From: Ruminococcus sp. AF31-8BH
GTDB taxonomy: Bacteria > Bacillota > Clostridia > Lachnospirales > Lachnospiraceae
NCBI RefSeq assembly: GCF_003460605.1
Contig: NZ_QTVN01000001.1
Coordinates: 310,001 to 374,000 of the forward strand
Direction of reading: 5' to 3'
Length of the DNA: 64,000 nucleotides
The notes under the pieces are model-generated. The model was given only the letters and a program-made list of their open reading frames with translations. It did not search any database and was not told the origin of the DNA. The translations under genes and the position numbers were made by a program. This document shows, piece by piece, positions 8,778-10,859 of this stretch. Position 1 is the stretch's first letter. Each line of letters starts with the position of its first letter.

Positions 8778-10859
8778 TTAAGCTAACTTGTGGAACATAT
8801 GCCGAACCTTATCTATACGGCTATTCGGGCGGCGGGGTTGGCAAATAAATTTACCAATAGCTGGCTGGTATCCTTTTAACTCTGTCAAGCAGACTCCCTG
8901 CCCATTTGTGAAATAAGTTAAATCGTTCCTGTATTCTTGAATACATCTAGCAGGGATTTCTCCTTTCAGAATGACCTCGTCATTCTTTATCTGAGTACTT
9001 ACAATATCTGCACAATACCTTGGAGCATCATGATACGCCCGTGAGAGATATTCCTGCGGTGCATAAATTTCAAAGTGGAGATATGGCTCTAATAGTTCTG
9101 TCCCTGCTTTTTTTAAAGCCTGCTCCAATACGATAGGGGAAAGCAGCCGAAAGTCTGCGGGGGTACTTACAGGACTATAATACAATCCATATTCAAAACA
9201 GATTTTACAGTCTGTCACTTTCCATCCATACAGCCCCTGCTCGCAGCCATAAAGAACCCCCTCCATAACCGCATTTTGGAACGATTGATTTAAATATCCA
9301 AGTGAAACTCTGCTTTCATACTGCACTCCGCTTCCAATAGGGAGCGGCTCTATGGACAACCCGACAGAAGCCCAGAAAGGATTTGGCGGGACTTCTATGT
9401 GGATGGTATATTCTGCTTTTCTAAGCGGTCTTTCCATATATATAACAGTAGGCTCTTTTATTTCTGCCTCCACATGATATTTTTCCTCAAGGATGGCACA
9501 AATGACTTCCATCTGCACATTCCCCAAAAAAGAAAGTATAATCTCATGCGTTGTAGTATCCACATAATATTTTAAAAGAGGGTCGCCATCTGAAATTTCT
9601 GTAAGTGCCCCAAGCAATATTTCCCGCTGTTCAGGTTTCTTTACTGCAATCGTTGTTTGGAGCATAGGGAGAGGATTTTCAATAAATTTTCTCTGCGGCA
9701 ACAGCATTTCGTTCCCCAAAATACTGTTTAGCTGCAAAACATCATTTGGTAAAATTACAATATCACCAGAGCAGGCTGTATCGGATGGATATAATTCACC
9801 GTTTGTCGGAACACACATCTCTGTGATTTTTATTTTCTCTTTTTCAGATATTCTAATAACATCCCTCAAATGCAATGTTCCGCTATATATACGCACATAA
9901 ACAAAACGCCGCCTTTTCTCTGAATATTCAATCTTAAAAACCTGCCCGCATAATTCAGATTGACCTTCAGGCGTTGATGAATAAAATTTACTGGCAATCA
10001 CTTCTATAAGCTGCCGAATCCCCAGATTGTTTTTAGCGCTTCCGTGATAAACGGGAAATAACGTTCCGTTTTGGAATCTCCTGTTTTCTTCCTGTTCCAG
10101 TTCTGACATTTTAAACGGTTTCCCTGACATATATTTCTCTAATAGTTCATCGTTTCCCATAATTACCGCATCCCACTGTTCCATATCGTCATTGTCCGTT
10201 ACATTTATATGGGGATGCTGCCCAACCTTTTGCTTCACTATAATTTCCGAAGAAAGCTTTGCTTTCATTTCCCGATATACCATTGGCAAATCAATCCCCT
10301 CTTGGTCAATTTTATTGATGAAAAAGATTGTCGGAATCTTCATTGTCTGTAGTGCATGAAACAGTATACGGGTCTGTGCATGCCCAACCTTTTGCTTCAC
10401 TATAATTTCCGAAGAAAGCTTTGCTTTCATTTCTCGATATACCATTGGCAAATCAATCCCCTCTTGGTCAATTTTATTGATGAAAAAAATTGTCGGAATC
10501 TTCATTGTCTGTAGTGCATGAAACAGTATACGGGTCTGTGCCTGTATGCCATCCTTTGCAGAAACTAATAATACTGCTCCGTCTAAAACGGATAAAGAAC
10601 GGTATACTTCCGCCAAAAAATCCATATGGCCTGGCGTATCTATAATGTTGACTTTTACATCCTCCCACTGAAAAGATGTCACTGCTGTCTGGATAGTGAT
10701 TCCCCTTTGACGCTCCAAATTCATTGTATCTGTCCTTGTTGTGCCTTCATCTACGCTCCCTAGTTCTGCAATTGCACCACTGGTATATAATAAACTTTCC
10801 GTTAATGTTGTCTTTCCTGCGTCAACGTGAGCCAGAATGCCTAAGTTAATTATTTTCAT
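8778..10859 (-). CDS. tet(O): Tet(O) tetracycline ribosomal protection protein with internal duplication
   Basis: An EF-G-like GTPase that removes tetracycline from the ribosome. The start MKIINLGILAHVDAGKT (G1), the DTPGH (G3) motif and the C-terminal RRPNSRIDKVRHMFHKLA match Tet(O) as I recall it. Tet(O) is normally 639 aa; this frame is 693. The extra 54 residues are a tandem in-frame copy of residues 107-160, so the G4 motif NKID occurs twice (about 128 and 182). The frame is otherwise intact. Whether the protein still works is uncertain, because the insertion is inside the GTPase domain. It is preceded by a tet(M)-type attenuator leader and has inserted beside a truncated ICE gene. Confidence 0.93.
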   Translation of the reverse strand: MKIINLGILAHVDAGKTTLTESLLYTSGAIAELGSVDEGTTRTDTMNLERQRGITIQTAVTSFQWEDVKVNIIDTPGHMDFLAEVYRSLSVLDGAVLLVSAKDGIQAQTRILFHALQTMKIPTIFFINKIDQEGIDLPMVYREMKAKLSSEIIVKQKVGHAQTRILFHALQTMKIPTIFFINKIDQEGIDLPMVYREMKAKLSSEIIVKQKVGQHPHINVTDNDDMEQWDAVIMGNDELLEKYMSGKPFKMSELEQEENRRFQNGTLFPVYHGSAKNNLGIRQLIEVIASKFYSSTPEGQSELCGQVFKIEYSEKRRRFVYVRIYSGTLHLRDVIRISEKEKIKITEMCVPTNGELYPSDTACSGDIVILPNDVLQLNSILGNEMLLPQRKFIENPLPMLQTTIAVKKPEQREILLGALTEISDGDPLLKYYVDTTTHEIILSFLGNVQMEVICAILEEKYHVEAEIKEPTVIYMERPLRKAEYTIHIEVPPNPFWASVGLSIEPLPIGSGVQYESRVSLGYLNQSFQNAVMEGVLYGCEQGLYGWKVTDCKICFEYGLYYSPVSTPADFRLLSPIVLEQALKKAGTELLEPYLHFEIYAPQEYLSRAYHDAPRYCADIVSTQIKNDEVILKGEIPARCIQEYRNDLTYFTNGQGVCLTELKGYQPAIGKFICQPRRPNSRIDKVRHMFHKLA
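10219..10542 (-). repeat. 162-bp in-frame tandem duplication within tet(O)
   Basis: Blocks 10219-10380 and 10381-10542 align at an offset of 162 bp with two internal differences (10272/10434 and 10326/10488). Both differences are silent, so the encoded 53 residues (AQTR...QKVG) are identical. The single junction residue differs (His versus Gln). Confidence 0.95.

What the first reader, a model, noticed from the sequence alone, without database searches (positions are those of the whole stretch)
10219..10542. In-frame 162-bp tandem duplication in tet(O) with silent divergence between copies
The sequence shows a Tet(O) frame lengthened by 54 residues by direct duplication of a segment including the G4 motif NKID. 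The two copies differ at two bases, both synonymous, and encode the same 53 residues. A recent copying slip or a collapsed assembly would give identical copies, whereas these two may come from different tet(O) alleles joined by unequal recombination, or from an older duplication kept under selection. No frame break occurred. A GTPase with two G4 segments has not, to my knowledge, been described for this family.
Basis: partly seen in the sequence, partly recalled or inferred. Interest (0 to 1): 0.8.

Follow-up and report, generated by a model that had tools for sequence, protein, structure and literature searches.

The report
Tet(O) gene with internal tandem duplication
A tetracycline-resistance gene in a bacterial mobile element reads as if a 162-base piece of its GTP-binding domain were present twice in a row, the two copies matching two different natural versions of the gene; this is a rare recombination product or an assembly error, and whether the lengthened protein works is unknown.

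Summary
The duplication is in the sequence as described: tet(O) (window 8778-10859, minus strand) encodes 693 instead of 639 residues because 162 nt (10219-10380 and 10381-10542) stand twice, in frame, encoding the same 53 residues. The copies differ at three positions: two silent sites and a G-to-T seam base that makes one Gln a His. The 2.6-kb cassette otherwise equals one known allele (L001) as far as aligned; the two silent differences both lie in the 5' copy. The 5' copy is identical over 162 nt to 9 of 87 rows of another allele group, the 3' copy to 5 of 87. So the extra copy most likely comes from a second tet(O) allele, recently. Both flanks belong to one integrative element, so this is no gross chimera. 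No other record with this seam or doubled segment was found. A local mis-join of two alleles in one sample would also give diverged copies, so an artefact is not excluded. Structure prediction failed for protein and control. Function untested.

The parts
8778..10859 (-). tet(O), 693-aa open frame (ordinary length 639)
   Evidence: two overlapping matches to the TetO chain of 4v6v (1-159 to 1-159; 162-693 to 108-639)
10381..10542 (-). 5' copy of the 162-nt unit (encodes residues 107-159 and parts of the codons on either side); T at gene 372 (window 10488) and A at gene 426 (window 10434)
10219..10380 (-). 3' copy of the unit (residues 161-213); C at gene 534 (window 10326) and G at gene 588 (window 10272); from its second base to the gene end identical to L001-L004
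10380..10380 (-). seam base: T where both parental positions in L001 have G (CAG there, CAT here; Gln to His160); 3-nt shared CAG at the join
10467..10478 (-). first G4 motif NKID (residues 128-131)
   Evidence: translation; motif name recalled
10305..10316 (-). second G4 motif NKID (residues 182-185)
   Evidence: translation; motif name recalled
8539..11170 (-). conserved tet(O) cassette: leader, tet(O) and a small downstream cysteine-rich frame, found in many hosts
   Evidence: the small frame is read and is called 'KTR domain-containing' in the annotation of L083
11088..11399 (-). DUF6674 frame of the integrative element, cut by the cassette edge at 11170/11171

Best explanation
A tet(O) gene of the L001 type, riding as cargo in a conjugative element (host not named), recently gained a second, in-frame copy of residues 107-159 by recombination with another tet(O) allele. 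Proposed steps: a strand from a T372/A426-type allele paired with the resident gene by homology upstream of gene 372, was copied through to gene 480, and was rejoined out of register at gene 318 through a 3-nt shared CAG, with one base changed at the seam. Shown: the tandem unit, the allele signatures, the shared CAG, the identity of all the rest aligned to L001, and one element on both sides. Inferred: the direction and the mechanism. Effect (inferred): the GTP-binding domain holds a helix-strand-helix segment (fold names recalled; seen here only in low-confidence models) twice. One copy would have to pack in the core and the other protrude. Most likely this impairs Tet(O); partial function is possible.
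For: Outside the unit the cassette is identical to L001 as far as aligned: upstream piece 2 differences in 790 nt, both in the 5' copy; downstream piece 0 in 1640. The 5' copy is identical over 162 nt to 9 of 87 rows; the 3' copy from its second base to 5 of 87. Two new silent transitions landing by chance on states already joined in other alleles are unlikely: there are 51 possible silent transitions in the unit, and 7 third-position transition states are seen among 87 rows (silent by my reading of the codons). My rough post-hoc estimate is about 0.016 for two known states and lower for this pair. Frame kept; no N in the window. Window 1-1620 and 11171-14911 lie in the same order and strand on one contig of G001. 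L066 shows another tandem join of diverged tet(O) pieces: leader plus first 83 nt twice, about 91% alike, one copy identical to L059 and L077.
Against: No row among 87 has the full left haplotype (A72 T273 C353 T372 A426), so a crossover between gene 274 and 371 or an unsampled allele must be assumed. Only two informative sites. Of the 20 T+A rows, 10 carry a further, amino-acid-changing base at 425 that the window lacks. A single occurrence in the collections searched. The seam base fits neither parental position. No reads are available. The estimate against chance mutation is post hoc. Both AlphaFold2 models failed, so the folding claim is untested.
Confidence: 0.5

Rival explanations
1. Assembly artefact: two tet(O) alleles were present in the sequenced sample (two elements or two strains). 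The assembler switched between them and joined two contig ends without merging their 161-nt overlap, leaving diverged tandem copies and a wrong base at the seam.
For: Single occurrence. The left haplotype is an unseen mixture of two known alleles, as consensus switching would give. The seam base matches neither parental position, as at a contig end. Relatives of the gene are very common: 417 stretches of genome contigs encode one. False duplications from divergent haplotypes are described for diploid genomes (PMC2864568, passages).
Against: No N in the window; the frame is exactly kept (about 1 in 3 by chance); a 3-nt shared CAG at the join; both flanks belong to one element, so it is not a join of unrelated loci; no other tandem of this kind in 64 kb.
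Confidence: 0.38
2. Simple replication slippage in an L001-type gene made identical copies; two silent mutations and the seam base came later.
For: All the rest aligned equals L001. Both changes are silent transitions. Needs one parent only.
Against: With both changes the 5' copy is identical to a copy already present in 9 of 87 rows, while about 2,400 other cassette positions compared with L001 changed nowhere.
Confidence: 0.12

Closest known systems
Tet(O) ribosomal protection protein (PDB 4v6v chain; NCBIfam NF033148)
   Same: Residues 1-159 and 162-693 align with only scattered substitutions to the 639-aa Tet(O); NF033148 scores 1382.5 bits against a cut-off of 1100
   Different: 54 extra residues; segment 107-159 stands twice, with two NKID motifs
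Mosaic tet genes (tet(O/32/O), tet(O/M/O), tet(S/M); tet(O/W) recalled)
   Same: Product of recombination between alleles within a ribosomal-protection gene (names seen; Warburton et al. 2016 not held, only its reference line seen)
   Different: Those, as recalled, keep about the ordinary length; here the pieces overlap instead of abutting
Homology-facilitated illegitimate recombination / unequal crossing-over with incoming DNA
   Same: Homology on one side and microhomology on the other (recalled for the former; its papers seen only as reference lines); tandem duplications with hybrid junctions by unequal crossing-over (PMC3784515, passages)
   Different: The duplications in those passages are about 100-900 kb and made by natural transformation; no such uptake is shown here
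L066 (Faecalicatena orotica) tet(O) leader duplication
   Same: Tandem join of diverged pieces of the same cassette
   Different: Lies upstream; its 639-aa frame is whole

Membership tests
TetM/TetW/TetO/TetS ribosomal protection proteins | Score above the family's curated cut-off | tested here: met
   NF033148 1382.5 bits, cut-off 1100, two stretches
TetM/TetW/TetO/TetS ribosomal protection proteins | EF-G-like domain set (GTP_EFTU, EF-G_D2, EFG_III, EFG_IV, EFG_C) | tested here: met
   All five Pfam domains above cut-off, GTP_EFTU in two stretches
TetM/TetW/TetO/TetS ribosomal protection proteins | One uninterrupted G domain of ordinary length | tested here: not met
   Residues 107-159 repeated as 161-213
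TetM/TetW/TetO/TetS ribosomal protection proteins | Ribosome-dependent GTPase and tetracycline release | not testable with these tools
   Needs protein
Mosaic tet alleles | Adjacent segments match different known alleles | tested here: met
   5' copy identical to 9 of 87 rows, 3' copy to 5 other rows, inside an L001-type gene; only two informative sites
False duplication by mis-assembly | Reads support one copy only | not testable with these tools
   No reads held; the own assembly is not held
Gross chimeric contig | Flanks belong to different loci | tested here: not met
   Both flanks on one contig of G001 in the same order and strand; likewise matches to 1-776 and from 11171 on single contigs of G646, G555 and G663; on different contigs in G535

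The most novel reading that the evidence does not exclude
A natural, expressed Tet(O) whose GTP-binding domain carries two interchangeable G4 segments made from two alleles, and which still protects the ribosome because either copy can pack while the other is extruded.
Probability: 0.17. Interest if true: 0.65.

Novelty: new variant of a known kind. Interest (0 to 1): 0.35.

Why it matters
If real, it shows that recombination between tet(O) alleles can make overlapping (tandem) as well as ordinary mosaic products, and it gives a natural test of how much insertion a translational GTPase core tolerates. If an artefact, it warns that diverged tandem copies in common mobile resistance cassettes are not proof of biology. 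Screening by gene presence alone would call this gene tet(O), whether or not it works.

Tried and rejected
Gross chimera of two loci: rejected, both flanks lie on one element in related genomes. Simple slippage only: disfavoured. Untemplated insertion of one T after a 161-nt duplication: equivalent to, but less simple than, a 162-nt duplication at a shared CAG with one substitution. Structure prediction: the 693-aa protein (mean pLDDT 35.9) and the 639-aa control (40.7) both failed, probably because the alignment rows were too alike, so nothing is concluded and no fold search was run. Literature: 0 papers for TetO + in-frame duplication + tetracycline; 0 for a five-term mosaic query; no bacterial resistance case by title and start of abstract among the 8 of 17 papers listed; Warburton et al. 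2016 not held. Full left haplotype sought in 87 rows: none.

Full report
What is there. The minus-strand frame 8778-10859 encodes 693 residues. It scores above the cut-off of the TetM/TetW/TetO/TetS family and carries the EF-G-like domain set. Against the TetO chain of PDB 4v6v it matches in two overlapping stretches, 1-159 to 1-159 and 162-693 to 108-639. That is an internal repeat: residues 107-159 recur as 161-213. At DNA level two 162-nt copies stand head to tail. They differ at 3 of 162 positions: two silent changes and the seam base. At the seam, the relative L001 has CAG at both parental places (codons 106 and 160), so the join can lie anywhere within a 3-nt identity; the window has CAT there, giving His160.

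How rare. The 20-nt seam pattern has 0 matches in genome contigs and 0 in viral contigs. A 40-nt query centred on the seam has no match in 72,556 plasmid records or 20,395 E. coli records. The phage collection and the metagenome contigs were not searched for it. A protein search restricted to residues 100-220 scored 2966 candidates. The window's own protein scores 250 bits and the next 125, as expected for a single copy (best 120 of 189 hits listed, in order of score). In the whole-protein search (best 120 of 5188 hits listed; only the 7992 candidates sharing most words were scored) one other listed protein is longer than 639 residues, P0004 of 832, whose extension is at the C-terminus. That database is clustered at 90% identity, so a rare member hidden in a cluster would not show. 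Each of the 80 genome-contig loci kept, of 417, carries the unit once. The tools warn that records of the window's own genome may be left out.

Which alleles. Rows with a full match to gene 1-479 at about 95% or more: 87 (82 loci, less L081, which is the same place as L082, plus L083-L088). At the two silent sites (372, 426) the rows are T+G 62, T+A 20, C+G 5. The 5' copy is T+A and the 3' copy is C+G. Ten of the 20 T+A rows also have A at 425, which changes the residue and which the window lacks; 9 rows are identical to the 5' copy over all 162 nt. Five rows (L001-L004, L088) are identical to the 3' copy from its second base. Compared with L001 (Eubacterium sp. MSJ-21), the piece from the cassette edge through the 5' copy differs only at 372 and 426 (2 of 790). 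The piece from the second base of the 3' copy onward differs nowhere in the 1640 nt aligned; L002 and L004 match without difference to the other cassette edge, 1841 nt. The T+A rows differ from the window at gene 72 and 273 instead. So the window equals L001 up to gene 371, has the T+A states at 372 and 426, and equals L001 again after the seam; if the donor was a T+A allele, the switch lies between 274 and 371. No row has this left haplotype whole. The best plasmid records, four, have one mismatch in 479; in the two of them that I fetched, L083 and L084, it is at 426. Two silent sites are thin evidence; the inference rests on both lying in the extra copy and both being in a state carried together by an existing allele group.

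Surroundings. The cassette 8539-11170 occurs in many hosts. Its right edge cuts a DUF6674 frame at 11171, where matches to element-only relatives begin exactly. Of 397 family genomes, 30 match one side or the other of this edge, and none of the listed matches crosses it by more than 8 bases. The element has T4SS-ATPase, coupling-protein, relaxase, sortase and adhesin-like frames. On G001 contig C254, window 1-1620 and 11171-14911 lie 6.1 kb apart in the same order and strand. Matches to window 1-776 and from 11171 also lie on single contigs, in the same order and strand, in G646, G555 and G663, about 12 to 24 kb apart; in G535 they are on different contigs (in one search, 71 of 397 genomes were not scored). 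The region 1621-11170 therefore looks like a cargo site of one element, and the contig is not a join of two unrelated loci at tet(O).

A parallel. Of the 80 loci, one (L066, Faecalicatena orotica) holds part of the cassette twice. Its leader and the first 83 nt of the gene are repeated in tandem, the copies about 91% alike over 388 nt. One copy is identical to L059 and L077 over 394 nt; the other is at best 92.0% identical (L080) among 82 matches of 350 nt or more. Its 639-aa frame is whole. This is a second tandem join of diverged tet(O) pieces, or a second artefact of the same kind.

Real or artefact. For real: frame kept, no N, shared CAG, coherent element. For artefact: one occurrence, unseen left haplotype, odd seam base, and a very common mobile gene of which two alleles may lie in one sample. 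I put a real duplication at about 0.6 in all (0.5 between alleles, 0.12 by slippage) and an artefact at 0.38.

Function. The unit covers a helix, the strand ending at NKID, a helix and a short strand. These elements appear at 106-118, 123-128, 137-147 and 153-156 in the low-confidence control model and agree with recalled EF-G anatomy. One unit must pack and the other protrude, and the two 53-residue copies are identical in protein sequence, so either could. I expect impaired function, without a test. The complete frame is no proof of selection, because the event is recent.

Verdict. An unusual allele of a well-known resistance gene, with fair evidence that two alleles contribute; it needs reads before anything is built on it.

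Noticed in passing
L066:2690-5352: Faecalicatena orotica tet(O) cassette with leader and first 83 nt of the gene repeated in tandem, copies about 91% alike, full-length frame intact.
   Followed up: partly
window 40245-40458: Array of about 6.7 copies of a 32-nt GC-rich unit with short inverted repeats, between frames of the conjugative element.
   Followed up: no
window 57014-63976: Tn916-type integrase frame (57014-58240), a MatE frame and a TcpC frame (63203-63976): possibly the start of a second conjugative element beside the first.
   Followed up: no
window 11088-11399: DUF6674 frame truncated to about its N-terminal quarter at the edge of the tet(O) cassette; relatives match up to exactly 11171.
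   Followed up: partly
P0004 (832 aa): Tet(O) relative with its C-terminal end replaced by about 200 unrelated residues, apparently a fusion.
   Followed up: no
G001:C216 (L081, L082, L130): The nearest held genome carries a tet(O)-like gene 99% identical over the first 479 nt and 94% beyond, looking like a mosaic allele.
   Followed up: no
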